DNA of 64,000 nt, from NCBI GenBank assembly GCA_937868765.1, contig CALMNL010000006.1:124001-188000 (forward strand), in the 5' to 3' direction. The translations under genes were made by a program, and so were the position numbers. Positions 16,896 to 42,739 of the stretch are shown piece by piece (the first letter of the stretch is position 1; every line of letters begins with the position of its first letter). The notes beneath the pieces are model-generated. The model worked only from the letters and a program-made list of their open reading frames with translations, was not told the origin of the DNA and searched no databases. The DNA is from an uncultured Desulfatitalea sp. (GTDB lineage Bacteria; Desulfobacterota; Desulfobacteria; Desulfobacterales; Desulfosarcinaceae).

Positions 16896-17180
16896 ATGAA
16901 CCAGAAGGCCCGCTTCTCCCCAGGCGCCGACAACGTCGAAGGGCGTTATGTCAATTATTTCATGATCGGTTACAACACGGATGTCTTCGTCATCGACTAT
17001 TTTCAGCATTTTCCCGAGGATCCCGAAGCCTGTGGGCGGCCGCAACCGCCCGACGAGCCCAAACTGCGTCTGATCACCAGCCCGTCGGACGCCCGCATGC
17101 TGCTGAACAGCCTGCGGGCCGCCATCAAGAAGTATGAAGCGGCCTACGGCCCGATCCAGAAGAGCAGGGTCGGGAAGTAA
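16896..17180 (+). CDS. DUF3467-like small protein, first gene of the injection-system operon
   Basis: A 94-residue soluble protein resembling the DUF3467 family: an N-terminal YVNYFMIGYNTDVFVIDYFQ strand region and a C-terminal ITSPSDARMLLNSLRAAIKKYEAAYG helix. The family has no established biochemical role. The start has a GAGGAAAGG ribosome site. It is the first gene after the sigma-54 promoter, 112 bases before the next gene, so it is probably co-transcribed with the tail genes; whether it is structural or regulatory is unknown. Confidence 0.65.
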   Translation: MNQKARFSPGADNVEGRYVNYFMIGYNTDVFVIDYFQHFPEDPEACGRPQPPDEPKLRLITSPSDARMLLNSLRAAIKKYEAAYGPIQKSRVGK

Positions 17181-17292
17181 AAAGATCAGTGCCGTGAACA
17201 AAAGCGAACAGGCTTTTAAAACTGTTGAAAAAACATGCATGGAATCGACCATGCGGAGCTATGCGCTGGCAAAATAACCACAGGAGGCTGAC

Positions 17293-17553
17293 ATGGATAT
17301 CATCGTTCAAAACACGGGCCGCTTCGGCTATTGGCTGACCCTTTCGGACGGCCGATCCGTGGAATTGTCGCCCAAGGCCGGGCCCGTAACCCTTCCCCAG
17401 AGGGAACTGGAGGTCAACGGCGCCTTGCAGAAGATGCTGGAGCGCGGGCTGGTCCGCAGGCTGGAGCCCGGCAAGACCGCTTCGAAGAAAACCAAGAGCG
17501 AAGCCCAGGCCGGGGCTGCCGGGAAGAAGTCGACCGGCAAAGCAAAGCCGTAG
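17293..17553 (+). CDS. small hypothetical protein with basic tail, injection-system operon
   Basis: An 86-residue protein I cannot assign. Residues 1-60 alternate hydrophobic and polar residues as in a small beta domain (IIVQNTGRFGYWLTLSDGRSVEL) and end in a short helix LQKMLERGLVRRLEP. The last 25 residues are a Lys/Ala/Gly tail, probably disordered. It has an AGGAGG ribosome site and is 37 bases before the sheath gene, so an accessory or chaperone role in tail assembly is possible but unproven. Confidence 0.6.
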   Translation: MDIIVQNTGRFGYWLTLSDGRSVELSPKAGPVTLPQRELEVNGALQKMLERGLVRRLEPGKTASKKTKSEAQAGAAGKKSTGKAKP

Positions 17554-17590
17554 AAGGGCTCATCACCCGCTTCAAGGAAGGAGAAAACAA

Positions 17591-19579
17591 ATGGCGACAG
17601 TTTCATATCCGGGCGTTTATGTCGAGGAGATCCCTGGCGGCGCCAAGCCCATCGAAGCGGCCAGCACCTCCACCGCCGCGTTCGCGGGCGAGTCCCAGAA
17701 AGGGCCGGGCACCTACGCCAGGCGCATCACCAGCTGGGAGGAATACCTCAAATACTACGGCACGTTCATTGCCGGCAGCAGCCTGGCCGAGAGCGTTTTC
17801 CAGTTCTTCAACAACGGCGGCCGCCAGTGCTACATCGCCCGCGTGCTGCGCTCCGGCGCCGGCATCGCCTCGGTCTCGGTCAACAACCGCGCGGGAACGC
17901 CCGTTGCCGATGCGATCACCTTCAGCGCCAAAAACCAAGGCGAATGGGGCAACTATCTCTACCTCGCCATCGAAGCCCCCGGCAGCGAGCCGGGCAACCG
18001 CTTCAAGGTCAGCGTGCGCCGCCAGACCGCGGCCGCCGAGATTCCCACCGGTGCAGAGGTCCCACCGCCCCTGGAGGTCTTCGACAATCTGAGCATGGAC
18101 CCCGATTCCCCCGATTTCTGCCAGACCGTGATCAACCGGGATTCGGATTACATCGACATCGAGGTGGAAGCGGCCAACAATTCCATCCAGTCGGGTTTCA
18201 TCCAGGGCGGCGCGATCACCCTGGCCGATGCGGCGGTGCCCGCCATCGTGGGCCGCCGATTTGAAATCAATATCGATGAGGACGGCTTTCAGCAGGTGAC
18301 CCTGGCGGACAGCGCCTTTGCCTCCACGGTGGAAGTATTGCGCGCCACCATCCAGACCGCCGTGCGGGCCCTGACGGCCAGGCGGGCCAGGACCCCGGCG
18401 GCCGCTTTCACGGCCGCGACCTGCACCGTGGCCGCCGTCACCGGCGGCCAGATCCGCTTCACCCTCATCTCGGGCACCAATGCGGGCCTCACGGCCAGCA
18501 CCCAGGCCGGCGCCACCCCCCGTTCGTCGGTGCGCATACGGCCGGCTGCGGCCGGCGACGTAGCCGCTACCCTCGGCTTCCGGGCCAGCGACAACCCCGT
18601 CTGTTCCGATGCCCTGGCGCCCCGCCGTCCGGCGCTTTTCGACGCGCTGCAGATCGGCGACAATGCGGTAGCCGGCAATGTGACCAGTGCCACGGCGGGT
18701 ACCGACGGCACCGGCGCCCTGCAATCCTCCCACTTCGAGACCGCCTTCCATCTGCTGGACGACCTTTCGGACGTGAGCCTGCTGGCCGCGCCGGGCATCG
18801 GCACCACCTGGATCGTGGATGCCGGCATGAGCTACTGCGAAGGGAGGGAATTGAAGGACATCTTCTTCATCGGCGAGACCGGGCTGGTGGATGACCAGCC
18901 CGCCGAAGCCGAAGCGTTCCGCAAGAATCTGACCAAGGCCAATTCCTACGGTGCCGTCTACTACCCCTGGATCCTGGCCAACGATCCCGCCGGCCGTTCC
19001 AGCGTGCCGATTCATCTGCCGCCTTCGGGCTACATCGCCGGCCTCTATGCCCGCATCGACAACACCCGGGGGGTGTGGAAGGCGCCGGCCGGCACCGAAG
19101 CCAGCCTCAGCGGGGCCGTGGGACTTACCTACACCTTGAGCGATACCGAGCAGGGCAACCTCAATCCCATCAATGTCAACTGCCTGCGCCGTTTCGACCT
19201 CTCCGGGCTGGTCTCCTGGGGGGCGCGTACCATATCTTCCGATCCGGAGTGGAAGTACGTCCCGGTGCGGCGCACGGCGATCATGTTGCGCAAGAGCATC
19301 TACAACGGCATCCAGTGGGCCGTGTTCGAGCCCAACGACGAGCGATTGTGGTCCTCCCTGCGGTTGAATATCGGCTCGTTCATGAACGGTCTCTTCCGGG
19401 CCGGTGCCTTCCAGGGCGTCAAGGCTTCGGACGCCTACTTTGTCCGCTGCGGCCTGGGGGACACCATGACCCAGGGCGACATCGACCGCGGCCAGGTGAT
19501 CGTGCTGGTCGGTTTTGCACCGCTGAAGCCGGCTGAATTCGTCATTGTCCGCATTCAACAAAAAGCCGGTCAGCAATAG
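17591..19579 (+). CDS. contractile tail sheath protein (Afp2/Pvc2-like)
   Basis: Forms the contractile outer sheath that drives the inner tube into a target. The 662-residue protein begins with the sheath signature YPGVYVEEIPGG...IEAASTSTAAFAGESQKGPG. It ends in the conserved C-terminal sheath domain (RRTAIMLRKSIYNGIQWAVFEPNDERLW...DRGQVIVLVGFAPLKPAEFVIVRI). The middle (about residues 150-330) is an Ala/Thr-rich insertion likely exposed on the sheath surface. Only one sheath gene is present, whereas Afp and PVC carry three. AAGGAG precedes the ATG. Confidence 0.95.
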   Translation: MATVSYPGVYVEEIPGGAKPIEAASTSTAAFAGESQKGPGTYARRITSWEEYLKYYGTFIAGSSLAESVFQFFNNGGRQCYIARVLRSGAGIASVSVNNRAGTPVADAITFSAKNQGEWGNYLYLAIEAPGSEPGNRFKVSVRRQTAAAEIPTGAEVPPPLEVFDNLSMDPDSPDFCQTVINRDSDYIDIEVEAANNSIQSGFIQGGAITLADAAVPAIVGRRFEINIDEDGFQQVTLADSAFASTVEVLRATIQTAVRALTARRARTPAAAFTAATCTVAAVTGGQIRFTLISGTNAGLTASTQAGATPRSSVRIRPAAAGDVAATLGFRASDNPVCSDALAPRRPALFDALQIGDNAVAGNVTSATAGTDGTGALQSSHFETAFHLLDDLSDVSLLAAPGIGTTWIVDAGMSYCEGRELKDIFFIGETGLVDDQPAEAEAFRKNLTKANSYGAVYYPWILANDPAGRSSVPIHLPPSGYIAGLYARIDNTRGVWKAPAGTEASLSGAVGLTYTLSDTEQGNLNPINVNCLRRFDLSGLVSWGARTISSDPEWKYVPVRRTAIMLRKSIYNGIQWAVFEPNDERLWSSLRLNIGSFMNGLFRAGAFQGVKASDAYFVRCGLGDTMTQGDIDRGQVIVLVGFAPLKPAEFVIVRIQQKAGQQ

Positions 19580-19599
19580 CCGGGTGAAGGAGAGCGAAT

Positions 19600-20109
19600 A
19601 TGGCGGCACCCATGTTTCCGGTCAACGCGCATCGCTTTGACCCCTATCGGACCTTTAAGTTTCAAGTGATCATCGACGGCAAGCCGGTGGCCGGCCTGCG
19701 CAAGATGACGGCCCTGAAGAAGACCACCGAGGTGGCGGCGTGGCGGACCGGCGGCGATCCGAGCCACGAGCGCAAACTGCCCGGGGGCACCAAGTACGAA
19801 CCGGTGACCCTGGAGCAGGGGCTCACCCATGACCCGGTTTTCGAAAAGTGGGCCAACCTGGTCAACAACATCCAGGGAGATGCGGCCATGTCCCTGGTCA
19901 ACTTCCGCAAGGATATCGTGATCAATGTCCTCAATTTGCAGGGCAACGTGGCCATCTCCTACAAGCTCTTCCGGGCCTGGGTGGCCGAATTCCAGGCCCT
20001 GCCCGACCTGGATGCCGGCACCACCAATACCGTGGGCATCCAGTCTATCAAACTCGAGCATGAGGGCTGGGAGCGCGACACCTCGGTCACCGAACCCAGC
20101 GAGTCCTGA
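19600..20109 (+). CDS. inner tail tube protein (Afp1/Pvc1-like)
   Basis: Forms the hexameric rings of the inner tube inside the sheath. The 169-residue protein matches the phage T4 gp19-like tube family: FDPYRTFKFQVIIDGKPVAGLRKMTALKKTTEVAAWRTGG, then LEQGLTHDPVFEKWANLV and a C-terminal YKLFRAWVAEFQALPDLDAG strand pair. It follows the sheath gene by 20 bases with a GGAG site. Only one tube gene is seen; many related systems have a second one for the tube-baseplate junction. Confidence 0.93.
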   Translation: MAAPMFPVNAHRFDPYRTFKFQVIIDGKPVAGLRKMTALKKTTEVAAWRTGGDPSHERKLPGGTKYEPVTLEQGLTHDPVFEKWANLVNNIQGDAAMSLVNFRKDIVINVLNLQGNVAISYKLFRAWVAEFQALPDLDAGTTNTVGIQSIKLEHEGWERDTSVTEPSES

Positions 20110-20119
20110 TAGCCGATAG

Positions 20120-20953
20120 ATGCACAGCGACCTCCAGACCTTCGACCTGCCCGGCGGCCTTTTCGACGGCCGGCGGGTTTACCGGCAAGCGCGCTTCGTG
20201 CCGCTTACCGGCCATATCGAGGCTCGCATCGCCGCCCTGGGCCAGCGCCCGCTGCCGGACCTCGAGCGCAGCATCGAGATTCTGGGCTGCGCCGTCGGTC
20301 TGGGGCCGGAACTCAAACCCGACCCCGGGATGGCGCGGCTGCTCTGCCTGGGGGACCGACAGTTCCTGATGCTCTGCCTTTCAAGCCTCGCCGGCGGTGA
20401 AGCGGTCTGGTTCCATCCCCAATGCGCCGGTTGCGGCCGCCATTTCGATATTCAAGTCCGGTGGTCGCAAGTTCCAGTGAAACCTGGTGGCGCCGGATAT
20501 CCTTTGACTCAGGTGCAGTGCGGGGAGGAAATGCTTCGCTTCCGGATCCCCAACGGCCTGGACGAAGCCAGCATCCGGGGCCAGGCCTATGAACAAGCGG
20601 TGGCAATCTTGCTGATGCGCTGCCTGGTCGTCGATTCCGATAAACAGGACGCCGCGGCGGTCATCCGCAGCCTGACGCCGGCACAGATCGAAAAGATCGA
20701 GCAGTCCTTGGACACGGCGGCACCGGATGTGGGTTCCCGGGTGGATACCCAATGCCCGGAATGCGGCCGCCCCCAGGTGGTCGTCATCCCCATCGATCGT
20801 CCGCCGGAGGTGGCCCCGCTGGTCCTGTACAAAGAGATCCACCTTTTGGCCCAGCAATACGGCTGGCGCGAATCCGATATCCTGGCCCTGCCGTCCTGGC
20901 GCCGCAAGCTCTATATCGGTATAATCGAACAGGCCCGAGGTTTTCATGGCTGA
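20120..20953 (+). CDS. baseplate hub assembly chaperone-like protein with four-Cys zinc site
   Basis: A 277-residue protein of the T4-type baseplate hub/assembly chaperone group found in phage-tail-like operons. Two CxxC pairs, Cys102/Cys105 (CAGC) and Cys212/Cys215 (CPEC), can form one zinc site. The C-terminus has the family-typical KEIHLLAQQYGWRESDILALPSWRRKLYIGII. It overlaps the next gene by 8 bases. A direct structural role is an alternative to a chaperone role. Confidence 0.72.
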   Translation: MHSDLQTFDLPGGLFDGRRVYRQARFVPLTGHIEARIAALGQRPLPDLERSIEILGCAVGLGPELKPDPGMARLLCLGDRQFLMLCLSSLAGGEAVWFHPQCAGCGRHFDIQVRWSQVPVKPGGAGYPLTQVQCGEEMLRFRIPNGLDEASIRGQAYEQAVAILLMRCLVVDSDKQDAAAVIRSLTPAQIEKIEQSLDTAAPDVGSRVDTQCPECGRPQVVVIPIDRPPEVAPLVLYKEIHLLAQQYGWRESDILALPSWRRKLYIGIIEQARGFHG

Positions 20954-22256
20954 TTCCTCCAACGCCCGCCCCGGCGGCTATTTCCACCGGATCGTCGCCA
21001 GCTCGAATTCCGGGGCGAGATCTGATAGGGTAGAAAATCGGTCTTCGGGACTGCCGGTGATCGGGTTGTTCGAGTCCCTGGTACCGCCTTGGCTGCCGGC
21101 GACGGAGATGACCAGCGACTGGCGTCAGACAAACGCCCCATCATCCCCGGCACCTGATGAGGGGGTGCGGCCTCAAGACGTTGATGTTACCAATCCTTCA
21201 CTCGGTTGGGGGGAGGAAGGCCCTTTGTCCGGGGGGCGCCCCGGCTTGCATGCAAGTGCGGTTTACTTCGGTGAACCGGCTTTTCCCCGGTCCGATCCTA
21301 AGGCGGTCGGTAGCGCAAGCGAGAGTTCCTGCGATACACATGTCGAAGGCATAGGGCATACGGAGGTTGTTCACGCGAGTGGGCCTACAGCGCCTTCCTC
21401 AACTGACTGTATTGAATCCGGTGTTTCGAAAAGGCCTGAGTCACATCAGGTTTTGCTGAATGGCAGTAAGGTCGAAAGGTACGTCGATGCTAAGGACCGG
21501 AGGCAGCCAGCGGCGTTATCCCGCGACCGCGATCCCAGCGGTCCGGGCCGCAGCGGCCTGGGTAACGACCGCGCGGGCCTTCCTCCCCCATCCTCTTTAG
21601 AAAATCCCTTGGTCGAAGCCCCATCGGTCACCCTGCCGGAGGCGGTTCGGGCCCTTGCGCCGCAGGTGTCCGGGGGGGCGCAGGCATCCAGCCCGCCGAA
21701 ACAACGAGCGGCCGAAAGGCAATCGGCCCCGGGTGAAACGGTGGCGGCGCCCCACCGGCATCCAGGTGTCGCATCTGCCCTCAGCCGGTCGCCATCCGGC
21801 GATCGGGACCCCTCGGTAGGGGATAGGGTAGCCGTTGATGCGGGGCCGAACCAAACCCCTTCAGGCGCAGGGCCGGATTCTCTGGTAAAGCCGATTCGGC
21901 CGAACGCATCGGCCCAAACGCCGCCATCTTCCTACGCCCCCGAAAGGGTGCACGCCGCGCCGCCGGCTTTGGCGGCCGCCGTTCCCAACGCGCCAAGACC
22001 CGAGCCGCCACCAACGATACCGCTGGTCGGCCCTGTCTTGAAAGCCGAACCGCTCCGGCCTTTACCCCGAGACGACCGGCCGCGTTGGGGCCGCGCCGAT
22101 GCTCGGCAGGCGCCCGAACCGGCCAGCGAGCCCCAGGTCCGCATCGGCTGCATCGATGTCATCATCGAAAGCCCGCCGGCGCCCCCCCAGGCCGCCCCGC
22201 CATCGTCCCACGGCACCTTCGGCATGGCCAGCCGCTATTACTTGAAGGGACTGTAA
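20946..22256 (+). CDS. long disordered Pro/Ser-rich protein of the injection system
   Basis: A 436-residue protein with no recognisable globular domain over most of its length; the centre is Pro/Ala/Ser/Gly-rich with less constrained codon use than its neighbours. Short ordered-looking ends remain: RPGGYFHRIVAS near the N-terminus and VRIGCIDVIIESPPAP...SRYYLKGL at the C-terminus. It sits between the baseplate chaperone and the tube-cap gene, overlapping the former and touching the latter. A tether, plug or length-setting role is possible; no recognisable tape measure exists elsewhere in the operon. Confidence 0.65.
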   Translation: MADSSNARPGGYFHRIVASSNSGARSDRVENRSSGLPVIGLFESLVPPWLPATEMTSDWRQTNAPSSPAPDEGVRPQDVDVTNPSLGWGEEGPLSGGRPGLHASAVYFGEPAFPRSDPKAVGSASESSCDTHVEGIGHTEVVHASGPTAPSSTDCIESGVSKRPESHQVLLNGSKVERYVDAKDRRQPAALSRDRDPSGPGRSGLGNDRAGLPPPSSLENPLVEAPSVTLPEAVRALAPQVSGGAQASSPPKQRAAERQSAPGETVAAPHRHPGVASALSRSPSGDRDPSVGDRVAVDAGPNQTPSGAGPDSLVKPIRPNASAQTPPSSYAPERVHAAPPALAAAVPNAPRPEPPPTIPLVGPVLKAEPLRPLPRDDRPRWGRADARQAPEPASEPQVRIGCIDVIIESPPAPPQAAPPSSHGTFGMASRYYLKGL

Positions 22257-22257
22257 C

Positions 22258-23307
22258 ATGGAACCCAACGCCATTTCCATCGCGGCGAGAAACCTGCGTG
22301 CCTACCTGGCCGACCGGCTCGCGCTCAGCGAAGACAACCTGCTCATCGGCCACCCCCTGGTCGCCGCGGCCATCGCCGATGCCAATCCGGGCGACCAGTT
22401 CATCAACCTCTTTTTCTTCCGGGTGGCTTACGGCGGATATCCGCCCGATGGAAGCAGCACGGAACCCTTCTACATCCGCATCTACTGCCTGATCACCGCC
22501 TTCGGCAACAACGAGACCGGCGATGACGGCACCATCACCCTCAGTGCCGGCGAAAACGACCTGCGCCTCATGGGTGGCGTCATGGCCCACCTGCACGCAG
22601 AACCCGTGCTGGCGGTCCAGGACGCTCAAGCGCAGACGGTGGCCCGCCTGCAGATCGTTTTAAGCCCCCTGGAGATCAGCGACATCAACAATCTCTGGTC
22701 CACCCAGGCCGACACGCCCTACCGGCTGTCGGTGGCCTATGAACTGGCCATGGCGCCCATTCCCCTGGCCATGGCCCGCGATACCACCAAGCGAGTGGCG
22801 CAGATCGGCGTGAATGCGGTCCCCGAAATGAAACAGCCCCTGCTGACCACCCAGGGCCTGGAGATCCCGGCCCGCGCCACATCCGTGGGCCGGGTGCGTA
22901 TCGATACCGACCAGGCCGCCTGGGCGCCTCATTTGGTTCTGCTGGACGCGGACCAGCGGCCGGTCCACGCGCTCTTGTTCGAGGCCGGCGCAGTGCCGGC
23001 CCAGGTGGCGCTCATCGGCCTGGGAGAGAAGGATGCATCGGTCTCCCTGGTCTGGGAGCAATGGCATGCCCAGCAGGGCTGGCGAGCAGTCGCGCTCACG
23101 CCGGTGCCCACCGTGACCCTGACCGGCCCCCTCTTCGACCCGGCCGATTTCGATCCCGGCGAGGCGGTCTCCGTGGCGCTGCCGACCACCGCCCCGGGCC
23201 AGCTGATGCTGCACGCCGTGCGGCGGGTCGTCCTGCCCGGCGGCCGGGAACTGACCTTGCGCAGCAATCCGCTGCTGGTCACCATCTTCGCGGGAAATGG
23301 CCCATGA
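22258..23307 (+). CDS. DUF4255 tail terminator/cap protein (Afp16/Pvc16-like)
   Basis: DUF4255 proteins cap the tube and sheath end of Afp and PVC particles and fix particle length. The N-terminal ~190 residues fit that domain (ISIAARNLRAYLADRL...QFINLFFFRVAYGG...FYIRIYCLITAFG...YRLSVAYELAMAPIPLA). About 160 further residues form a beta-rich C-terminal extension (VSLVWEQWHAQQGW...LMLHAVRRVVLPGGRELTLRSNPLLVTI). It ends in an ATGA overlap with the AAA+ gene. Confidence 0.88.
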   Translation: MEPNAISIAARNLRAYLADRLALSEDNLLIGHPLVAAAIADANPGDQFINLFFFRVAYGGYPPDGSSTEPFYIRIYCLITAFGNNETGDDGTITLSAGENDLRLMGGVMAHLHAEPVLAVQDAQAQTVARLQIVLSPLEISDINNLWSTQADTPYRLSVAYELAMAPIPLAMARDTTKRVAQIGVNAVPEMKQPLLTTQGLEIPARATSVGRVRIDTDQAAWAPHLVLLDADQRPVHALLFEAGAVPAQVALIGLGEKDASVSLVWEQWHAQQGWRAVALTPVPTVTLTGPLFDPADFDPGEAVSVALPTTAPGQLMLHAVRRVVLPGGRELTLRSNPLLVTIFAGNGP

Positions 23308-24864: not shown

Positions 24865-24867
24865 GCT

Positions 24868-25500: not shown

Positions 25501-25510
25501 GAGGCGTGTT

Positions 25511-33983: not shown

Positions 33984-34045
33984 CGCCCATGAGTTCCCCA
34001 TGATTGCAAAGATCCCGAAAACCGATTGATTGTGGAGCGAAAGTC

Positions 34046-36694
34046 ATGAAAACCCAGATCTCGAGGGACAGTTTCCATGCCGACAAGCGCTATTCCGGCA
34101 TCTACCAGCAACAGGGCCGCATGCTGGTGGACGCGGACTGGAACGAGCTGGTGGACCTCGTCAAGAACCGGCTGGACGAGGCCCTGGCCGACGTGATCCG
34201 CCAGGGCGCACCGCGCAGTGGCGGCGTGCTCGATTTCTCCACCGTCCCGCCCCGCATCCGTTGGGGGCGGCTCTATGCCGACGGCATTCAGGCCGAGCTG
34301 CGGCCGCGGGTGACGCCCGGCACGCCGACGCCGGTGACTTTCGATTTCACCCGGCAGCAGGATTTCCCCGGCGTGGAGGCCATCGTCCCTTCGGGCAACT
34401 ATATCCTTTACGCCGATCTGTGGGAGCGGCCGGTCATTTCCCTGGAAGATGAGACCCTGCGCGACCCGGGCCTGCACGGCGCCGATACCTGCACCCGCAC
34501 CCGGACCATGACCCAGGTCAAATGGTGTCCGGTGGCCGTCGACCCGGAGAACGCCGCCCAGAATCCCACGATCGGCACCGCCGGCCTGGACCTCTCGTTG
34601 CGCCAGACCGGCACCGGCGACGAGGCGGGCGATCCGTGCGGCGGCACCGCCGGGGTGCTGGACCTGAAAACCGGCAACTATCTCTTCCGGGTGGAAGTCC
34701 ACCATGTGGCCGGTGCCGCCGCCAACCCGGACGCCGTCGTGCTCAAATGGTCTGCGGAAAACGGCGCGGAGCAGCACCTGGTGCGGGCCGACGGGGCGCT
34801 GGTGGACACGGTGCCGCCCGAATTCAAGTCGGGCGACTGGGTTTATGAATTATACAGCGGCATCAGCGAGACCCACCTGGGGGTCCAGCATGCCGCGGCT
34901 GCCGGTTTCCCCGCCCGGTTCGACCTGATCGCCGACGGCTATCCGGCCGTGATCCCCAACGCCGCCCAGTACGTCCGCCGATGGGACGGCTATTGCCGGC
35001 TGACCCGCGTCGGCACCGTCTGGTCGGCCGCCGGCAAGGACGGCGCCGTGGCGTTGACCCAGGTTTCTTCGAGCACCGGCGACGACATCGCCACCCACGG
35101 CGATGTGAAGTTCGAAGCCGGCGGGGTGAAGATCTTCCTGAACAACATGATCCTGTCCCTGGCGCTGGACGGCCGGACCTTCCTGGCCGGCGACTTCTGG
35201 CAGGCCATGGTGCGCGACAACACGGCGGATGGGGACCAGGTGCAGTTGTACTCCCGGGAGCCCATGGGCATCCGCCACCACTACATCACCCTGGCCCGTT
35301 TCCAGGCCGGCGCCATGGTGGGGCCGGACAGCACCGCCGTTCGCCGATTGAGCTTCCCCCCCTTGGGCAATCTCACCGCCGACAGGGTCGGCTACGATCC
35401 GGCCGCCGTCCAGGCCCGTTGGACCGACATCCACGACAACCCGGCCACCCCCATGCCGCTGACCGTCCAGGCGGCCATCGACGACCTGGTGCAAAACCTG
35501 GAGAGCAGCGACATTGCCTACCCCCTGCCGGGCTGCATTCCCGCGCTCGCCGTTCGGCGTCTGCTGCCGGCCCTCCAGGCCGTTGCCGACGGGACCCGCC
35601 TTAGCATCGACACGATCCTGACCGCGTTGCTCTGCGAGCTGCGCGCCACCACGCTGCCGTGCAGCGACGGCGGCGCGGACATCACCACCCAGGCCGCCCT
35701 GGACAACCGGGTGCACAAGACCGGCGACACCATGAGCGGCAAGCTCACCATCCAGTCGGACCTGGAGGTCAGCCAGAATATAGGCATCGGCACCGCCACT
35801 CCGGCGACCCGCCTGCACATCCTGTCCGGGACCGATACCAGCCCGACCACCCCCGGGCTGATGGTGCTGGGCCGCATCGACGGCACCAACATCTCCATGG
35901 ACGACAACGAAATCATGGCCCGCAACAACAATGCCGTGGCCCCGCTGCATTTGAATCACGAAGGCGGCCAGGTGATCGTCAACGGCAGCGGCAACGGCAG
36001 CCTCAGCATAGGCAGCAGCGATTTCGAAGCGCGGCTCAACGTGAACGGCACGGCCAAGATGGCCGGCTTCAAGATGACCACCGGCCCCCAGAGCGACTAC
36101 GTGCTCACCTCCGATGCCAACGGGGTCGGCACCTGGCGGCCGGCAACGCCTTTCGGGTGGCGGGTGGTAAACAACAACCTGGTTTTAAACAGCGATCAAA
36201 TCACGGGAAATGTGGGCATCGGAACCAACGATCCCCAGGCAAAGCTCTATGTGAACGGCAATGCAGGCGTCAGCGGCACCCTGTATGCCACCCGGGTGTT
36301 CCGGGACAACCTTTTGGATAGTGTCAATTTCTACATCGAGCCGACCACCACCAGCACTTCGTTTGTGGAAATTGCCGGCTGGAGCGCCACGGTGGCCGTG
36401 CCCGGGCCTTCGCGGCTGCGCGTGGTGCTGGAGATCTCGGAATTTTCCGTCAACGGCGGCACCTTTTCTCCGGGGACGGCCAGGAACGCCTACATCCAAA
36501 TGCGCATCGACACCACCCCAGTCCCCCTGTGGGGACACAGCCAGCTGGGCAACTGGACCCTGCAGAATCTGACCATCAGCCAGGAATTCCCCATTACTGC
36601 CGGTACGCACACCCTGCGGATCGATTGGCGGGTCAATCTGCCGCAATATACCGGAACTTTGAAGTCCAACCAGAGAAGGTTCGAAACCGCTTAG
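34046..36694 (+). CDS. DUF6519 baseplate domain fused to tail-fibre-like stem
   Basis: An 882-residue protein. Residues 1-~200 match the DUF6519-type domain seen in eCIS loci (SRDSFHADKRYSGIYQQQGRMLVDADWNE split around residue 20). From about residue 575 come fibre-stem motifs of the NIGIGTATPATRLHI and GNVGIGTNDPQAKLYVNG type (near 577 and 720), as in phage tail fibres. The last ~125 residues form a separate beta-rich domain that could bind the target surface. The ATG at 34046 has a GGAG site; an upstream start at 34004 is weaker. This is the best candidate for the target-recognition fibre. Confidence 0.78.
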   Translation: MKTQISRDSFHADKRYSGIYQQQGRMLVDADWNELVDLVKNRLDEALADVIRQGAPRSGGVLDFSTVPPRIRWGRLYADGIQAELRPRVTPGTPTPVTFDFTRQQDFPGVEAIVPSGNYILYADLWERPVISLEDETLRDPGLHGADTCTRTRTMTQVKWCPVAVDPENAAQNPTIGTAGLDLSLRQTGTGDEAGDPCGGTAGVLDLKTGNYLFRVEVHHVAGAAANPDAVVLKWSAENGAEQHLVRADGALVDTVPPEFKSGDWVYELYSGISETHLGVQHAAAAGFPARFDLIADGYPAVIPNAAQYVRRWDGYCRLTRVGTVWSAAGKDGAVALTQVSSSTGDDIATHGDVKFEAGGVKIFLNNMILSLALDGRTFLAGDFWQAMVRDNTADGDQVQLYSREPMGIRHHYITLARFQAGAMVGPDSTAVRRLSFPPLGNLTADRVGYDPAAVQARWTDIHDNPATPMPLTVQAAIDDLVQNLESSDIAYPLPGCIPALAVRRLLPALQAVADGTRLSIDTILTALLCELRATTLPCSDGGADITTQAALDNRVHKTGDTMSGKLTIQSDLEVSQNIGIGTATPATRLHILSGTDTSPTTPGLMVLGRIDGTNISMDDNEIMARNNNAVAPLHLNHEGGQVIVNGSGNGSLSIGSSDFEARLNVNGTAKMAGFKMTTGPQSDYVLTSDANGVGTWRPATPFGWRVVNNNLVLNSDQITGNVGIGTNDPQAKLYVNGNAGVSGTLYATRVFRDNLLDSVNFYIEPTTTSTSFVEIAGWSATVAVPGPSRLRVVLEISEFSVNGGTFSPGTARNAYIQMRIDTTPVPLWGHSQLGNWTLQNLTISQEFPITAGTHTLRIDWRVNLPQYTGTLKSNQRRFETA

Positions 36695-36720
36695 CAGCCT
36701 ATTCGAAAAGGAGCGTTCGC

Positions 36721-37284
36721 ATGCACGTGGTCAGAGAGAAAAAGAGCGGGCAGGTGCTCTTCATCGACTATTCCAGCAGCGGCAAACCCAGGGCGGCCAA
36801 GAGCGTTTACCCCCTGTTCGACCCCTCCAAGATGGAGTTGGGATGGACCAGAGAGCGCCACATCCCGGCCGATTTCGACATCGACGAAAAAGGTCGGATC
36901 GTTCCGATTCCGGTGGAACGGTTGGTCTCAGAGGGACGGGTGACGCCGGCGCCGGACCAAAAGGTGGTCAACGGGCGGATCGTTGGCAAGAGCATCGCGG
37001 AGCTGGTGACCGGCGGACTGCTCTCCCTGGAAGAAGTGAAGAAAGGCTACCTCGAGCGCTTCTCCCATGAGGCATTTCTCTTCAGGCAGCAGCTCATTCC
37101 GGATTACAAACTTCAGAACGCCGCCCTGGGCGTGTATGACGAGCAGACCGCCGAAAGCTTCAAGAGAACCATCGCCGCCTTTCGCCAGGAATTCTACCGC
37201 CTCAAGGAGGCCGTGGAAAAGGCGGCGTCGGTGGCGGAACTGGAGGCCATCGCGCCCAATTTTCCCGCTGCGCCGATTCCCTAA
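36721..37284 (+). CDS. hypothetical protein following the fibre gene
   Basis: A 187-residue protein with no firm family. The first ~90 residues are beta-like (HVVREKKSGQVLFIDYSSSGKP..) and the rest helical, ending LKEAVEKAASVAELEAIAPNFPAAPIP. The arrangement resembles phage tail-fibre assembly proteins or small attachment proteins encoded after fibres. AAGGAG lies before the ATG, 26 bases after the fibre gene. A fibre chaperone or fibre-tip partner is the most likely role, inferred only from position and shape. Confidence 0.6.
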   Translation: MHVVREKKSGQVLFIDYSSSGKPRAAKSVYPLFDPSKMELGWTRERHIPADFDIDEKGRIVPIPVERLVSEGRVTPAPDQKVVNGRIVGKSIAELVTGGLLSLEEVKKGYLERFSHEAFLFRQQLIPDYKLQNAALGVYDEQTAESFKRTIAAFRQEFYRLKEAVEKAASVAELEAIAPNFPAAPIP

Positions 37285-37315
37285 TCGGCCATTTTGTCGA
37301 AGGCTGCCACCTGAA

Positions 37316-40300
37316 ATGAAGACCCCTTCGTCCAAAGAACCGCCCGCATCGCGCCCCCATATCAAGGGGACCTCCGGCGCCAGGGGCCAGGTCCAGCGCA
37401 AGCGGAATGCGGAGGCCATCGCCGCCATCGGTTCGATCCTGTGCCCTTCGTCCACCCAGCGCAAGACCGTGGTCAACCCACCCGACGATCCTTTCGAGCG
37501 GGAGGCCGATGCCGTGGCCGACCACGTGGTGGCCGGGCGGTCGGCGCTGCCGATCTCCAGGCTGCCGGCGGCGGGTGCCGGCGGTGCCGTCATGGGCAAA
37601 TCGAAGGAAGAACTCGAGGAGCCGGTCCAGCGCAAGTCCAAAGAGCAAGACGAGGAGCGGCTCCAGACCCACACCCTCCAGAAGAAGCGCGAAGAGGAAG
37701 AAGAGAAGCCCCTCCAGCGCAAAGAGAAGGAGGAGGAAGAAGAGATCCTGCAACCCAAGGCCATCGGCCTGTCGCCCTCGCTCCTGGCCGACCGGATTCT
37801 CGACAGCAAAGATGCCGGTGCCCCCCTGGCGCCGGCCACCCGTTCCCGCCTGGAATCCGGCATGGGGGTGGATCTCAGCGCCGTGCGGGTCCACCAGGAC
37901 CGCCGGGCCCACCAGGCGGCCCGCGACCTGAACGCCCGGGCTTTCACCCATCGCAACGATATCTGGCTGGGGGCGGGCGAGTCCCAGGCCGACACCCACC
38001 TCATGGCCCACGAGGCCGCCCATGTGGTGCAGCAACAATCCGGGCTGGTGCAGCGGGTGGTGCAGCGGACCAACGGCGATACGGCTCCGGCCCCCGCCGC
38101 AGCGACGCCCGCCGCGACGGCCGCCGCGACGGCCGCCGGGGCGGCCGCCGAAACCGAAGCGGTCCCCGATCCCCGGGAGCTGCCCCTGGAAACCGGGCGG
38201 CTCAATCCGGACACCAACACCATCACCTTCTCCGAGATCGATATCCCCCGGTTCAAGATGGCGGCCCATCGCGGCGAACACTACAATGCCCACAAACCCT
38301 TGAAGCGCAAGCGCGGCTACGACCGCGGCAATCCGGATCAACGGGAGAAGTGGAAGAACGAAGTCAGCAAAGCCACCATCCGCACCATCCTGGAAGACAA
38401 GGTCAAACGGGCCCATCACGTGGAGACCGTCGACCCGGCCCTGACCTATGTTTTCGAAGTGCCCGTGCGCGGTTCGGGCGCGCGGCCGTTTGTCTTCGGC
38501 GACCTGGAGACGGTCTCCCGCGAACTGACGACGCCCATGTGGGGCGGCACGGCCCGTCGCAATCCGCCGCTGGTCTTCTTCCAGGTCGACCACATCGTCG
38601 AATTGCAGTTGGCCAACTGGAACACCGAGACCTGGGCCAATGAATTGGCCAACATGGAACTGCTCGAAGGCGCGGTGAACGAACAATCCGGCACCGATAT
38701 CCGCGGCAACATCATCGACAAGGCCAACCAGTTCAACCAGGCGACCCACAACCGCTACGGGGCCGGCGCGGCCGACATCAAGGCCAACTACGATCTCGAA
38801 TTTCTCACCCCCGTGGCCCGCGGCGGTACGGCCAATGTCACCCGTACCCAATATTGGAAGCGCAGTGAAATCGAAGCGGGCGATCACCTCAACGCGGTGC
38901 AGGCCAGAGATCCCTCGGTGCTGGGGGGGGACGGCATCGTGCGGGTTTTTTCCACCACCACCGGCGGGCTGGGCAAGTCTTTCCGCTGGCCCGGCGCCTT
39001 GACCCCCGAGGAGCGGCGCTGGCTCAAGCCCTTCGTCATCACCGAAAAGAATTTCACCACCGAGGGGGAGAGTGTCGAACAGACCCCGCAGCTCGGCGCC
39101 TTCCAAGTGAACGTGCCGGCGGACGATCCCGACTGGCGGCCCTTCACGGCCGATGCGCCGGTCCCCATCGACCGTATCCCCGGGGCTCGTTATGCCGGCG
39201 CCATCCGCAAGCAGTCGGTGCTGAGCCAGCTGCGCGGCCTGCGGCACAAGAAGATGAGCCCCATCGTGGTGGATCAGTTCGATCTGCTGCCGGACCAGGG
39301 CATCGTGGTCACCGGCCGGGTGATGCCCGAAATCACCCTGCTCGGCTCAAGTGGCCTGGGCTTCGAGCTGAGCAACGGCCGTCTGCGATTGTACAAGGAG
39401 TTCGCAGGCGAAGCGCTGAATGCGCCGGCACCCTTCGCCATCCGGCGTTCGTCGCTGACCATTTTTGCCGATACGGCTGCCGGTCTGGGGGTGAGCGGTC
39501 GGGTGGATTTCGGCATCGACCGGGTGGGCGAAGGTTTCCTGGGCGGATCGGTGAGCACCGGCGGCGGGTTGGCCTTCGAAGGCGGTTTCGATTTCGATTC
39601 ACGGCTTTTCGACCCGGCCCGGGTGGAGATCCATTACCAGGACGGACGGGTCAGCGGCACCGGAGATATCGGCATTCCCGAAGGCAAGGTCCCGGGCGTC
39701 AAGTCGGCCAACCTCCATCTTGAAATCGGCGAAGAGCGCATCGCCGGCACCGGGACCGTCGAGCCGGCCATCAATGCCATCCGCCAGGGAACCGTCACCT
39801 TCGCCTACAGCCCCCAAGAGGGGGTGGTCATCGGCGGGTCGCTGGAATTGGCGGACAACCTGCCCAATGTCAGCGGCGGTTCGGTGGAAGCCCGCATCCG
39901 CCAACGGCCGGACAGCGATGCCTACGAATTGAGCGCCGGCGGCGAGATCCAGGCGGCCATGGCCGGTATCACGGCCACCTTGAGGGCCGACTACGAAAAC
40001 GGACGCTTCACCGTGGAAGGCGAGGGCAACTACGCGCGGGGCATGCTCTCCGGTTCCCTGCGCATCGGCGTCACCAACCGCGCGGTGGGCGCCGACGGCC
40101 AATTGGGGGAAGAGGCCACGGACCGGATCATCGCCTACGGCGGCGGCACGATGACCGTCCGGATCGCCCCGTGGCTGCAGGGCACGGTGGGGGTGCGCCT
40201 GCTGCCCAACGGCGAGATCGAACTCTCCGGTGCCATCGGCCTGCCCGATGTGCTGGAGATCTTCCCGGAAAAGCGGCTGGACCGGAACATCTTCTCCATC

Positions 40301-40939
40301 AGCCTCGATATTCCCATCATCGGCTTCGCCGTGGCCGGCCAGCGGGTGGGCATCTTCGCCAGCATCGGCGGCGGCCTGGACCTGAGCGCCGGCATCGGCC
40401 CGGGCCAGTTGCGGGAACTGGGCCTGGGCATCACCTACAACCCCGACCACGAGGACCAGACCCGGGTCACCGGCGGGGCGCGCCTGGTGATTCCCGCCCA
40501 GGCCGGGCTGCGGCTCTATATCCGCGGCAGCCTGGGGGCGGGCATCCCCATCGTCAGCGCCGAACTGGGCCTGGAGGTCGGTGGCCGCCTGGGGCTGGAG
40601 GGGGCGGTGGAGGCCGGCGTGCAGGTGGAGTGGAGCCCGACCCGGGGACTGGTGCTCGATGCCGAGGGCGAAATCTACGTCCAGCCCCAGTTCCGCTTCG
40701 ACCTCACCGGTTTCGCCGAGGTCACCGCCGACCTCTTCATCACCGAGATCACCCTCTACGAGCGGCGCTGGGAGCTGGTCGCCTTCGAAACCGGGCCGGA
40801 CCTGCGCTTCGGCGTCCGCTTTCCCATCCATTACGAAGAGGGGCAGCCCTTCGACATCTCCTGGAACGATGTCCGGTTCGAGGTGCCGCCAATTAACACG
40901 CGCGAACTGATGGGCGATCTCATCGATCGCATCATATGA
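37316..40939 (+). CDS. DUF4157 protein, putative injection-system cargo with nuclease-like segment
   Basis: A 1207-residue protein. Residues ~165-245 are a DUF4157 domain with a zinc-protease-like HEAAH at 232-236 (MAHEAAHVVQQQSG); DUF4157 is strongly associated with eCIS toxins. Before it lies a Glu/Lys/Gln charged stretch (residues ~95-145) with QRK repeats, then an Ala-rich linker after it. Residues ~415-480 contain QVDHIVELQL and an ELANMELLEGAVNEQ block resembling HNH/endonuclease VII-type toxins. The last ~560 residues are Gly-rich beta repeats (VRIAPWLQGTVGVRLLPNGEIEL), suggesting a barrel or adhesin-like fold. No immunity gene is obvious. Cargo status is inference. Confidence 0.75.
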   Translation: MKTPSSKEPPASRPHIKGTSGARGQVQRKRNAEAIAAIGSILCPSSTQRKTVVNPPDDPFEREADAVADHVVAGRSALPISRLPAAGAGGAVMGKSKEELEEPVQRKSKEQDEERLQTHTLQKKREEEEEKPLQRKEKEEEEEILQPKAIGLSPSLLADRILDSKDAGAPLAPATRSRLESGMGVDLSAVRVHQDRRAHQAARDLNARAFTHRNDIWLGAGESQADTHLMAHEAAHVVQQQSGLVQRVVQRTNGDTAPAPAAATPAATAAATAAGAAAETEAVPDPRELPLETGRLNPDTNTITFSEIDIPRFKMAAHRGEHYNAHKPLKRKRGYDRGNPDQREKWKNEVSKATIRTILEDKVKRAHHVETVDPALTYVFEVPVRGSGARPFVFGDLETVSRELTTPMWGGTARRNPPLVFFQVDHIVELQLANWNTETWANELANMELLEGAVNEQSGTDIRGNIIDKANQFNQATHNRYGAGAADIKANYDLEFLTPVARGGTANVTRTQYWKRSEIEAGDHLNAVQARDPSVLGGDGIVRVFSTTTGGLGKSFRWPGALTPEERRWLKPFVITEKNFTTEGESVEQTPQLGAFQVNVPADDPDWRPFTADAPVPIDRIPGARYAGAIRKQSVLSQLRGLRHKKMSPIVVDQFDLLPDQGIVVTGRVMPEITLLGSSGLGFELSNGRLRLYKEFAGEALNAPAPFAIRRSSLTIFADTAAGLGVSGRVDFGIDRVGEGFLGGSVSTGGGLAFEGGFDFDSRLFDPARVEIHYQDGRVSGTGDIGIPEGKVPGVKSANLHLEIGEERIAGTGTVEPAINAIRQGTVTFAYSPQEGVVIGGSLELADNLPNVSGGSVEARIRQRPDSDAYELSAGGEIQAAMAGITATLRADYENGRFTVEGEGNYARGMLSGSLRIGVTNRAVGADGQLGEEATDRIIAYGGGTMTVRIAPWLQGTVGVRLLPNGEIELSGAIGLPDVLEIFPEKRLDRNIFSISLDIPIIGFAVAGQRVGIFASIGGGLDLSAGIGPGQLRELGLGITYNPDHEDQTRVTGGARLVIPAQAGLRLYIRGSLGAGIPIVSAELGLEVGGRLGLEGAVEAGVQVEWSPTRGLVLDAEGEIYVQPQFRFDLTGFAEVTADLFITEITLYERRWELVAFETGPDLRFGVRFPIHYEEGQPFDISWNDVRFEVPPINTRELMGDLIDRII

Positions 40940-40949
40940 GGATTCCGCC

Positions 40950-41927
40950 ATGAAAAAGAAGAGAAATACCGTTTCCATGCCGACGACAGAAGAGGGCGCC
41001 GTTGGTGGGCCGGGCGCCAAAGAGCTGGTCAGCCAGGGGGCCGTGCTGCAGATGAGCGGCGACCTGCAGGCGGCCAAAGCGGCCTATATCTGTGCCCTGG
41101 ACAAGGACCCTCGCAACGTTACCGCCCTGAACAACCTGGGTTTCTGTCATGCCCAGGAGGGGGACTACGCCCAGGCCATGGCCTTATACGCCCAGGCCCT
41201 GGCGATCGATCCTTCGCGGAGCATGGCCCTGGCCAACATGGGCGGCGCCCAGGCGGCCCTGGGCCAGATGGACGCGGCCATCCGTTCTTTCGAGAAGGCG
41301 GTGGAAATGGATCAACGCAACGCCCTGGCCTGGGAGAACCTGGGCAAACTCTACCTCGCCGCCGGCCGCTGCGGCGACGCCGAGGCCACCTGGCGTTCGG
41401 CCCTGGCCCTGTTCCCGGTGAACGCCGCCCTGCACACCGCCCTGGGCACGGTGCTGGCCGCTCAGAACCGGCTGGACGACGCCGTGGCTTGTTTTCAAAA
41501 AGCGCTCTCCCTGGACCCGGACCACACCAAGGCCTGGGTGCAGCTGGGCATCGTGCTTTTCATGCGCCGCGATCTGGGATCGGCGGCCGTGGCCATGAAA
41601 CGGGCCCTGGCCCTGGCGCCCGAGGACACCGGGGCCCGGCACCATCTGGCGATGATCGCCATGGCCAAGGGCGACGCCGCCGAAGCCGCCCGGGAACTTT
41701 CGCGCATCCTGATACTGGCGCCCAAGCATGCCAGGGCCCGCCTGGACCTTGGGGTTCTGGCGCTCTCCCAGCGGCGGTACCTGAAAGCCTTTGAGGATTT
41801 TCAGCAGGTTCTGGAAAACGACCCCGGCAATGAAAAGGCCAAGTACTACCGCTGCCTGGCTTCGGAGCTGCTGGGGCGGCGGGACCAGAGTCCCCCCCCG
41901 CAATTCAAGAAAGGAGAAAAACCATGA
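40950..41927 (+). CDS. TPR repeat protein
   Basis: A 325-residue soluble protein built from eight consecutive 34-residue tetratricopeptide repeats, from about residue 26 to 297, each with the A/G-x-A and NN-D-P spacing (GDLQAAKAAYICALDKDPRN, GDYAQAMALYAQALAIDPSR, and so on). There is no signal peptide. TPR arrays bind partner proteins. It begins 10 bases after the DUF4157 gene and overlaps the caspase-like gene as ATGA, so it is likely to act with that protease, as a scaffold or control subunit. Confidence 0.88.
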   Translation: MKKKRNTVSMPTTEEGAVGGPGAKELVSQGAVLQMSGDLQAAKAAYICALDKDPRNVTALNNLGFCHAQEGDYAQAMALYAQALAIDPSRSMALANMGGAQAALGQMDAAIRSFEKAVEMDQRNALAWENLGKLYLAAGRCGDAEATWRSALALFPVNAALHTALGTVLAAQNRLDDAVACFQKALSLDPDHTKAWVQLGIVLFMRRDLGSAAVAMKRALALAPEDTGARHHLAMIAMAKGDAAEAARELSRILILAPKHARARLDLGVLALSQRRYLKAFEDFQQVLENDPGNEKAKYYRCLASELLGRRDQSPPPQFKKGEKP

Positions 41928-42739
41928 AACGCTCGCTTCACATCGGCATCAACAACTACCCGGGGACCGAAATGGATCTGTCCGGGTGCGTCAACGACGC
42001 CAACGATTGGCGCGCGGCCCTCGAAGCTCGGGGATTTACGGCCGTCTCCCTGCTCGACACCAATGCCACCAAGAGCAACATGGTGGCGGCCATCACCCGC
42101 ATCGTCCAAGAGAGCGGGGGCAACGACATCGCCGTGATCACCTATTCCGGCCACGGCACCTGGGTGCCCGACACCGACGACGACGAAGCCGACGGCCGGG
42201 ACGAAGCCTTGTGTCCCCACGACATCACCGAAGGGAAGATCCTCAAGGACGACGAGCTGTATGAAATCTTCAGCGAACGCCACCGGGGCGCCCGGATCAT
42301 CCTGATCAGCGACTCCTGCCACTCCGGCACGCTGACGCGCGCCTGCCGGGTGATGCCGGGCGCCGAGGAGGACACCTGGGTATTCCAGAAAACCCGGTTC
42401 CTGGCGCCGGAATTCTATATCCGCGGCGACGAAAAGCTGCTCCGGCGCGCCCGCAGCGTGGAAAAGATCCGCGCCGCCGGCAAAATCCGGGCGGCGGCCC
42501 TCCTCATATCCGGCTGCAAGGACGATGAATACAGCTACGACGCCTGGTTCAACCAGAGGCCCAACGGCGCCTTCACCTTCGCCGCGCTGCAGGCCCTGAA
42601 GAACCTGCCGCCCACCGCCACATACCGGGATTGGCACAGGGCGATCCGCAAGATACTGCCCCATGTCAACTACCCGCAAACGCCGCAGCTTTCCGGCTCG
42701 TGGAGCCAATACGCCAAGTGGAAGGTTTTCCAGGAGTAG
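41924..42739 (+). CDS. caspase-like (peptidase C14/metacaspase) protease
   Basis: A 271-residue caspase-fold protein with the catalytic dyad visible as His77 in YSGHGTW and Cys132 in SDSCHSG. The DGRDEALCPHD acidic loop between them is typical of metacaspases. No prodomain, signal peptide or membrane segment is present, so it is an isolated protease domain. It is the last gene of the operon, translationally coupled to the TPR gene and followed by a terminator. It could be injected cargo, a processing enzyme for the DUF4157 protein, or a self-killing effector; sequence cannot decide. Confidence 0.9.
   Translation: MKRSLHIGINNYPGTEMDLSGCVNDANDWRAALEARGFTAVSLLDTNATKSNMVAAITRIVQESGGNDIAVITYSGHGTWVPDTDDDEADGRDEALCPHDITEGKILKDDELYEIFSERHRGARIILISDSCHSGTLTRACRVMPGAEEDTWVFQKTRFLAPEFYIRGDEKLLRRARSVEKIRAAGKIRAAALLISGCKDDEYSYDAWFNQRPNGAFTFAALQALKNLPPTATYRDWHRAIRKILPHVNYPQTPQLSGSWSQYAKWKVFQE

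What the first reader, a model, noticed from the sequence alone, without database searches (positions are those of the whole stretch)
16896..42739. Complete, compact extracellular contractile injection system in a likely Desulfobacterota genome
Eighteen or so consecutive plus-strand genes include sheath, tube, AAA+ ATPase, DUF4255 cap, hub, spike, gp25, two J-like wedges, gpI-like, DUF6519 and DUF4157 proteins, with no capsid, portal, terminase, integrase or lysis genes. The set fits the eCIS group (Afp/PVC/CIS) and not a prophage or T6SS. It differs from Afp/PVC in having one sheath and one tube gene, and in splitting Pvc7 and Pvc8 into separate genes. Family assignments are established knowledge; the organism and extracellular action are inferred.
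Basis: partly seen in the sequence, partly recalled or inferred. Interest (0 to 1): 0.85.

Follow-up and report, generated by a model that had tools for sequence, protein, structure and literature searches.

The report
Phage-tail-like injection particle carrying a caspase
This stretch of a Desulfobacterales bacterium's chromosome encodes a complete phage-tail-like molecular syringe of a known type; its operon is unusual in ending with a caspase-like protease gene and in appearing to be switched on through sigma-54.

Summary
Window 16896-42739 is a + strand operon of 22 genes for an extracellular contractile injection system (eCIS): sheath, tube, Pvc16 cap, AAA ATPase, hub, OB spike, gp25, two wedges, Tail_P2_I, a DUF6519 fibre and an eCIS_core (DUF4157) protein. 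No capsid or terminase family was matched in the operon or in 18 of 37 flanking ORFs. In two same-genus genomes the flanking genes are adjacent, so it lies on a ~34.7 kb island. Tail_P2_I with DUF6519 fits the published eBAP5 group: a new member of a known kind.

All 6 other long eCIS_core copies found are also followed by a TPR gene. The caspase is not general: 0 of 79 eCIS_core loci have one, and of 32 places of its subfamily in 395 phylum genomes only the window's own is known to be at an eCIS. A sigma-54 activator gene and a -24/-12 site lie just upstream; such sites occur in 7 of 8 loci compared, window included. Whether the caspase is injected, processes cargo or kills the producer is undecided.

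The parts
14869..49560 (.). genomic island of about 34.7 kb holding the activator, the eCIS operon, MarR, FUSC, a two-component pair and two MshEN/DUF202 genes
   Evidence: blastn of G008's kdsA/M23 junction: aligns to the window up to 14868 and again from 49561, with 36 bp between in G008; same gene adjacency in G009
15272..16615 (+). sigma-54 enhancer-binding activator (AAA+, GAFTGA, Fis HTH) with a receiver-like N-terminus lacking the phospho-Asp
   Evidence: Sigma54_activat 2.5e-65; alignment of 7 activators, read by eye
16830..16845 (+). putative sigma-54 -24/-12 promoter TGGTATTCTTCTTGCT, 50 bp before the first gene
   Evidence: only perfect match in the window; like sites in 7 of 8 loci, window included
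16896..17180 (+). DUF3467 protein, first gene
   Evidence: PF11950 1.1e-7; homologues in G023, G002, G014, G008 loci
17293..17553 (+). small protein before the sheath
   Evidence: ORF and GC3 only; NifT 0.0089 below cut-off
17591..19579 (+). sheath (single)
   Evidence: PF17482 8.3e-15, PF04984 1.2e-11
19600..20109 (+). inner tube (single gp19-type)
   Evidence: PF06841 1.1e-40
20120..20953 (+). T4_baseplate / DUF6760 protein
   Evidence: PF12322 6.5e-9; DUF6760 2.5e-4 below cut-off
20946..22256 (+). Pro/Ser-rich protein; position conserved, sequence hardly
   Evidence: same slot in G023, G002, G014, G039a, G004 with a short IGx(I/V)(D/E)(V/I/L) motif near the C-terminus, seen by eye
22258..23307 (+). 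Pvc16-like cap/terminator (DUF4255)
   Evidence: PF14065 2.7e-19
23304..24626 (+). AAA+ ATPase (Pvc15-like)
   Evidence: PF00004 1.7e-25 on a longer ORF
24619..24864 (+). 81-aa protein after the ATPase, position conserved
   Evidence: same slot in G023, G002, G014, G039a, weak similarity; no PHROGs or NCBIfam match; not scanned with Pfam
24868..25500 (+). CIS_tube protein (tube initiator, Pvc7 N-half)
   Evidence: PF19266 1.6e-7
25511..25810 (+). LysM-like protein (Pvc7 C-half)
   Evidence: PF05489 6.5e-4, below cut-off
25811..26938 (+). hub (gpD/gp27-like, Pvc8 N-half)
   Evidence: phrog_52 tail protein 7.5e-12, phrog_196 baseplate hub 6.7e-6
26943..27761 (+). OB-fold spike with an HIH motif near its end; no PAAR family matched in the operon
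   Evidence: PF04717 7.2e-23; sequence
27782..28168 (+). gp25 wedge
   Evidence: PF04965 2.4e-11
28176..29366 (+). baseplate wedge J1
   Evidence: TIGR02243 5.9e-23, below cut-off; phrog_10646 wedge 2.8e-6
29363..32317 (+). baseplate wedge J2
   Evidence: TIGR02243 2.9e-36, below cut-off; PF04865 on the longer ORF
32328..33983 (+). Tail_P2_I fibre-adaptor protein
   Evidence: PF09684 5.4e-6
34046..36694 (+). DUF6519 (eBAP5-type) fibre: anchor, GIGT-type repeats, beta-rich tip (repeats and tip by eye)
   Evidence: PF20129 4.1e-16 on an ORF with an earlier start; sequence; eBAP5 = DUF6519 in PMC12923769
36721..37284 (+). 187-aa protein; relative in a Nitrosomonas eCIS_core locus
   Evidence: phmmer 2e-24 to L090; no Pfam match
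37316..40939 (+). eCIS_core (DUF4157) putative effector: charged linker, eCIS_core, DHxVExQ..N..LL..N..SG segment, ~600-aa Gly-rich tail that looks beta-rich
   Evidence: PF13699 3.2e-22; conserved residues
40950..41927 (+). TPR protein, conserved partner of this eCIS_core protein
   Evidence: TPR_2 1.1e-40; next gene in all 7 copies, window included
41924..42739 (+). metacaspase-like cysteine peptidase, last gene, His/Cys pair intact
   Evidence: PF00656 5.1e-29; PDB 3bij 4.8e-34, metacaspase-1 4.7e-24
42772..42799 (+). terminator-like stem of 12 pairs and T tail

Best explanation
The operon makes an eCIS particle: a contractile sheath around a tube, capped by Pvc16, on a baseplate of gp25, two wedges and Tail_P2_I that carries a DUF6519 fibre for target binding. 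Transcription starts at a sigma-54 promoter driven by the adjacent activator, so particles are made on a regulatory cue. The eCIS_core protein is the main cargo or cargo adaptor, perhaps a nuclease, with the TPR protein as its cognate loading partner. The caspase, made in step with the TPR protein, is most likely (about 0.45) a further effector in the usual 3' effector position, handed to the particle by eCIS_core/TPR and acting as a protease in the target. Shown by sequence: gene content, order, overlaps, terminator-like stem, conserved eCIS_core-TPR pairing, promoter-like site, island. Inferred: transcription, assembly, release, fibre binding, nuclease activity, caspase delivery.
For: Structural set and sheath kinship. 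DUF6519 with Tail_P2_I matches published eBAP5 loci, one example being Desulfococcus multivorans (passages). Activator plus -24/-12 site: perfect in the window, within one mismatch in 7 of 8 loci, window included; activator gene within the fetched locus in 6 of 8. The window's and all 6 other long eCIS_core copies found (5 genomes: G039, G113, L060, L061 with two, L062) are followed directly by a TPR gene; the window TPR is by far the best match in its genome to the TPR of G039 (5e-56, next 1e-17). The caspase overlaps the TPR gene by 4 bases and the terminator-like stem follows it after 32 bp. It lies two genes from eCIS_core at the 3' end, a position typical of eCIS toxins (PMC8213781 and PMC11297309, passages).
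Against: The caspase has no N-terminal leader beyond that of its solitary 66%-identical relative in G009. No caspase in 79 eCIS_core loci (best other match E 0.56 in L094). Of 32 subfamily places in 395 genomes, only the window's is known to be at an eCIS, judged by Pvc16_N positions. The published eBAP5 group largely lacks Afp12 homologues, whereas this locus has two wedge genes. The nuclease reading rests on conserved residues and a weak GmrSD_C match (0.055) in 1 of 6 members, beside other weak matches of the same strength; no PDB relative; the predicted model was too poor to use (pLDDT 43). Loose -24/-12 matches over the window are no more than chance (5 against 5.5). Support for eCIS_core/TPR co-divergence is weak: Pearson 0.52, rank correlation about 0. 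Two of the 7 eCIS_core copies are cut by contig ends and lack the eCIS_core domain in what is held.
Confidence: 0.72

Rival explanations
1. The caspase acts in the producer: a cell-death or lysis-promoting protease that frees the particles, since the operon has no recognised holin or endolysin.
For: Last gene, probably co-expressed with the particle, with no added leader; no lysis family matched in the operon. eCIS are released on lysis (PMC8894135, passage).
Against: No caspase in 79 other eCIS_core loci, though those particles presumably must be released too. Bacterial metacaspases are not shown to lyse cells (recalled).
Confidence: 0.25
2. The caspase is a processing protease that matures the eCIS_core protein or its TPR partner, cutting at the Lys/Arg-rich linker before the eCIS_core domain.
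For: Gene adjacency and overlap with the TPR gene; metacaspases prefer Arg/Lys (recalled); the linker is Lys/Arg/Glu-rich.
Against: The same kind of linker exists in G039, whose pair has no caspase next to it.
Confidence: 0.15
3. The caspase is a passenger gene placed behind the TPR gene, with no role in the particle.
For: The subfamily is widespread: 28 of 395 phylum genomes; a 66% relative in the same genus has no eCIS gene beside it.
Against: ATGA overlap, intact catalytic residues and a terminator-like stem right after it.
Confidence: 0.15
4. The locus is a defective prophage or R-type tailocin rather than an eCIS.
For: Sheath, tube and baseplate genes are shared with phage tails.
Against: Pvc16 cap, AAA ATPase and eCIS_core are present; no capsid, terminase or lysis family in the operon (21 of 22 proteins by Pfam, the other by PHROGs and NCBIfam) nor in 18 of 37 flanking ORFs; sheath kinship.
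Confidence: 0.03

Closest known systems
eBAP5 (DUF6519/Tail_P2_I) eCIS group, e.g. Desulfococcus multivorans (PMC12923769, passages seen)
   Same: DUF6519 fibre directly after a Tail_P2_I gene; also known from Desulfobacterales
   Different: Two wedge genes where the group largely lacks Afp12; the eCIS_core-TPR-caspase end and sigma-54 activator do not appear in the passages seen
Afp / PVC (gene set recalled)
   Same: Sheath, tube, Pvc7-, Pvc8-, gp25-, J-, ATPase- and Pvc16-like parts
   Different: One sheath gene, not three; Pvc7 and Pvc8 each in two genes; no PAAR family matched; no Pvc13-type fibre or Pvc14-type tape measure recognised
eCIS of genome G023 (same GTDB family), closest relative by sheath
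   Same: Activator, DUF3467, sheath, tube, cap, ATPase, hub, J2, Tail_P2_I, DUF6519 in the same order; sheath 44% identical over its length (spike, gp25 and J1 were not called there)
   Different: Three other eCIS_core proteins in place of eCIS_core-TPR-caspase
Geobacter GSU0716 (PDB 3bij) and metacaspase-1
   Same: YSGHG and DSCHSG motifs, same family
   Different: The surroundings of those genes were not looked at here

Membership tests
eCIS | contractile sheath and gp19-type tube akin to eCIS ones | tested here: met
eCIS | Pvc15-like AAA ATPase and Pvc16/DUF4255 cap | tested here: met
eCIS | baseplate: tube initiator, hub, spike, gp25, J wedges | tested here: met
   LysM-like and TIGR02243 matches are below cut-offs
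eCIS | PAAR spike tip | tested here: not met
   no PAAR family matched; the spike has an HIH motif near its end instead. Not needed in all contractile tails (recalled)
eCIS | eCIS_core/DUF4157 marker | tested here: met
   PF13699 3.5e-22
eCIS | no capsid, portal or terminase | tested here: met
   operon proteins and 18 of 37 flanking ORFs scanned; 19 flanking ORFs were not
eCIS | tail fibre for target binding | tested here: met
   DUF6519 4e-16; binding itself not testable
eCIS | released extracellular particles | not testable with these tools
   needs microscopy
eBAP5 subgroup | DUF6519 fibre behind a Tail_P2_I gene | tested here: met
eBAP5 subgroup | largely without an Afp12 homologue | tested here: inconclusive
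   two wedge genes, both TIGR02243-like below cut-off; not compared with Afp12
T6SS | membrane complex TssJLM | tested here: not met
   none among the scanned proteins
metacaspase (C14) | His/Cys catalytic pair in YSGHG and DSCHSG | tested here: met
HNH nuclease (eCIS_core middle segment) | HNH motif and fold | tested here: inconclusive
   invariant DH..E..N..N in 6 of 6 aligned; GmrSD_C 0.055 in 1 of 6; no PDB relative; model pLDDT 43
eCIS effector by published criteria | near the operon and within two genes of DUF4157 | tested here: met
   caspase is two genes downstream; criteria from PMC11297309 passages
eCIS effector by published criteria | eCIS N-terminal signal peptide | not tested
   the published score was not run; the caspase has no N-terminal extension over its solitary relative

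The most novel reading that the evidence does not exclude
A caspase-armed eCIS: a sigma-54-switched particle that injects an active metacaspase, loaded through a conserved eCIS_core/TPR pair, so that one cell delivers a ready-made death protease into another.
Probability: 0.3. Interest if true: 0.72.

Novelty: new member of a known kind. Interest (0 to 1): 0.45.

Why it matters
The machine itself is a good, complete Desulfobacterota eCIS. What adds value is (1) a defined eCIS_core/TPR pair that recurs in three phyla and makes the role of DUF4157 proteins in loading testable, (2) a sigma-54 activator and promoter-like site shared by related loci, which offers a handle on when such particles are made, and (3) a candidate caspase in an eCIS operon, which the paper searches did not show to be described.

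Tried and rejected
Second eCIS in the same genome: the other sheath (C6:408 kb) lies in what looks by eye like a contractile prophage. Caspase as common eCIS cargo: rejected, 0 of 79 loci. A first caspase profile was built partly from wrongly cut sequences and was replaced by a motif-checked one of 10 sequences, which found the G039 caspase (E 1.7e-38), not among its seeds, in the same run; both gave 0 of 79. Second supposed case, G039 C1:1907 kb: a caspase in a protein with a lipoprotein-like N-terminus (by eye) about 2 kb behind a minimal CIS; I do not count it as cargo, but it is the only other C14 place near a CIS: of 20 C14 places in 28 genomes with a sheath or cap match, those two lie near one. 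C14 positions in 48 further genomes were not mapped to the eCIS loci and are not used. Fibre-tip relatives in viral contigs: none. Solved relatives of DUF6519 and of the HNH-like segment: none convincing. Target-site duplication: no shared word of 9 to 20 bases in the two flanks compared. Fold of the HNH-like segment: model too poor, so no fold search was run. The Rfam, plasmid and E. coli collections were not searched. Dropped before the count of eCIS_core/TPR pairs: G213, a weak partial match (1.7e-8) whose gene ends at a contig end, so its next gene cannot be seen. The scan behind the 79 loci used two peptide patterns and kept the best 80 of 112, so other copies may exist. One of the three island relatives fetched, G010, is not an empty site: a different gene follows kdsA and the contig ends there.

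Papers: searches for caspase, metacaspase or Peptidase_C14 with eCIS or contractile injection gave nothing relevant by title and abstract (3, 0 and 0 papers; one search mixed terms, 15 of 16 papers listed). RpoN with contractile injection system gave six papers, by title on T6SS or on Xanthomonas, not opened. Tetratricopeptide with eCIS gave one sponge-microbiome paper, not opened. These cover open PMC papers only; supplements were not available. Passages only were seen of PMC8213781, PMC11297309, PMC10553843, PMC12923769, PMC8894135 and PMC13277306.

Full report
Observation. The region is a tight + strand operon of 22 genes with mostly high GC3. Pfam, PHROGs and NCBIfam assign sheath, tube, T4_baseplate, Pvc16 cap, AAA ATPase, CIS_tube, LysM-like, hub, OB spike, gp25, two wedges, Tail_P2_I, DUF6519 and eCIS_core. 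Of the 22 proteins, 21 were scanned with Pfam (a few as longer ORFs); the 81-aa one only with PHROGs and NCBIfam. Several matches are below curated cut-offs (LysM-like, TIGR02243) and are called by position as well.

Not a phage. In PDB, named eCIS sheaths (Pvc2 3e-61, Afp3 3e-50, All3325 7e-45, down to Pvc4 4e-23) score far above pyocin (1e-10) and gp18 (1e-8 to 5e-8); the best three rows are named only phage tail sheath proteins and were not traced. No capsid, terminase or lysis family was matched in the operon or in the 18 flanking ORFs scanned, of 37 listed. Upstream lie kdsA, lptC, lptA, lptB and rpoN; downstream recA and alaS (gene names partly recalled from the families). In G008 and G009, same genus, kdsA is followed directly by the M23 peptidase gene that lies at 49661 in the window. 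The G008 junction aligns to the window up to 14868 and from 49561, so about 34.7 kb is extra here. A third relative, G010, has another gene after kdsA and its contig ends there; the other same-genus genomes were not looked at. No integrase or transposase family was among the matches, and no shared 9-20 base word was found between the compared flanks. Insertion here or loss there cannot be told apart.

Organism. A 475,582-bp contig of same-genus G008 has the length of record JACRDD010000004.1, Desulfobacterales bacterium (L086), and the genome of L086 has its C14 gene at the same coordinates as G008. So the order is very likely Desulfobacterales, phylum Thermodesulfobacteriota in NCBI terms.

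Type. [quoted passage not shown] an eBAP5 fibre is shown for Desulfococcus multivorans (PMC12923769, passages). The window's Tail_P2_I-DUF6519 order fits; its two wedge genes are not explained by that description. A single sheath is also what G023, G002, G014 and G039a have, while G046 and G003 have two. eCIS in sulfate reducers are in print (PMC10553843, passages). Pvc16_N occurs in 17 of 395 phylum genomes, own included; a sheath match in 13 of 60 relatives, own included, some probably prophage but not examined.

Control. A sigma-54 activator gene (15272-16615) precedes the operon. A perfect -24/-12 site lies 50 bp before the first gene. In eight loci, the window included, sites with at most one mismatch occur in seven: window, G008, G046, G003 perfect; G002, G014, G023 one mismatch; G039a none. 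The G023 site was found only after widening the stretch and relaxing the rule, and the G003 site lies 308 bp upstream. In the six loci found, 0 to 4 of 500 base shuffles did as well; G023 was not so tested. Over the whole window, loose matches are no more than chance. Six of seven activators aligned lack the receiver's phospho-Asp, by eye; the exception is L080, from an LCP-89 bacterium. This suggests control by something other than phosphorylation (inference).

The 3' module. The eCIS_core protein has a charged linker, the PF13699 domain, a middle segment with DHxVExQ..N..LL..N..SG invariant in the 6 aligned, and a ~600-residue Gly-rich tail that looks beta-rich. Long relatives were found in G039, G113, Draconibacterium (L060), Maribellus (L062) and a gammaproteobacterium (L061, two copies): 6 copies in 5 genomes, two of them cut by contig ends. 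In all six, and in the window, the next gene is a TPR gene. A weak seventh (G213) could not be judged. In the own-genome search the window TPR is clearly the orthologue. Distances of the two proteins correlate (r 0.52; 48 of 5040 permutations as good) but rank correlation is nil, so this is weak. In Streptomyces a DUF4157 protein is reported to interact with a cargo and is proposed to link it to the baseplate core (PMC13277306, passages), which fits an adaptor role.

The caspase. It overlaps the TPR gene by four bases and is followed after 32 bp by a 12-pair terminator-like stem. Motifs align with metacaspase-1 and with Geobacter GSU0716. Its subfamily has 32 places in 28 of 395 phylum genomes at E 1e-20; of the 17 genomes with Pvc16_N only G000 and G211 are among the 28, and in G211 the two lie on different contigs (taking the two samples of 395 as the same). 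A second copy in this genome (48%) has no eCIS gene beside it. No caspase was found in the 79 eCIS_core loci held, which reach up to 10 kb each side and are often shorter. Among 28 genomes with sheath or cap matches, 2 of 20 C14 places lie near a CIS: the window's and one in G039. Three viral contigs carry 40-41% relatives, and 1 of 50,697 phage records a 32% one. Its N-terminus equals that of the solitary G009 relative. So this looks like an isolated recruitment into an eCIS operon, not a general rule.

Reading. By published criteria, 3' position and DUF4157 within two genes, the caspase would be a candidate effector (PMC8213781, PMC11297309, passages). Lack of a leader leaves room for producer-side roles. 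I put injected effector at about 0.45, producer death or release 0.25, processing 0.15, passenger 0.15. The particle reading itself I hold at about 0.95.

Noticed in passing
genome G000 C6:389000-419000 (L003, L004), outside the window: What looks by eye like a contractile-tailed prophage with its own sheath, tube and a 1301-aa tape-measure-like gene.
   Followed up: partly
window 8108-14831: kdsA, lptC, lptA, lptB, rpoN and rapZ-like genes: sigma-54 itself is encoded about 4 kb from the eCIS activator, just outside the island.
   Followed up: partly
window 42900-49405: Rest of the island: MarR, FUSC, a response regulator and histidine kinase, two MshEN/DUF202 proteins after the eCIS terminator.
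   Followed up: partly
L139, L140, L141 (viral contigs): Caspases 40-41% identical to the window's lie in viral contigs; in L140 the next gene looks like a muramidase and in L141 tail-like genes follow (by eye, not searched).
   Followed up: partly
G039 C1:1896-1911 kb (L044): A second, minimal CIS locus with a caspase-domain protein with a lipoprotein-like N-terminus about 2 kb downstream.
   Followed up: partly
G000 C15:4555-5367 (L007): A second metacaspase gene, 48% identical, with no eCIS gene beside it.
   Followed up: partly
window 26943-27761: Near its end the spike has ATHIHTS; such an HxH could hold the metal of a PAAR-less tip (recalled from phage spikes).
   Followed up: no
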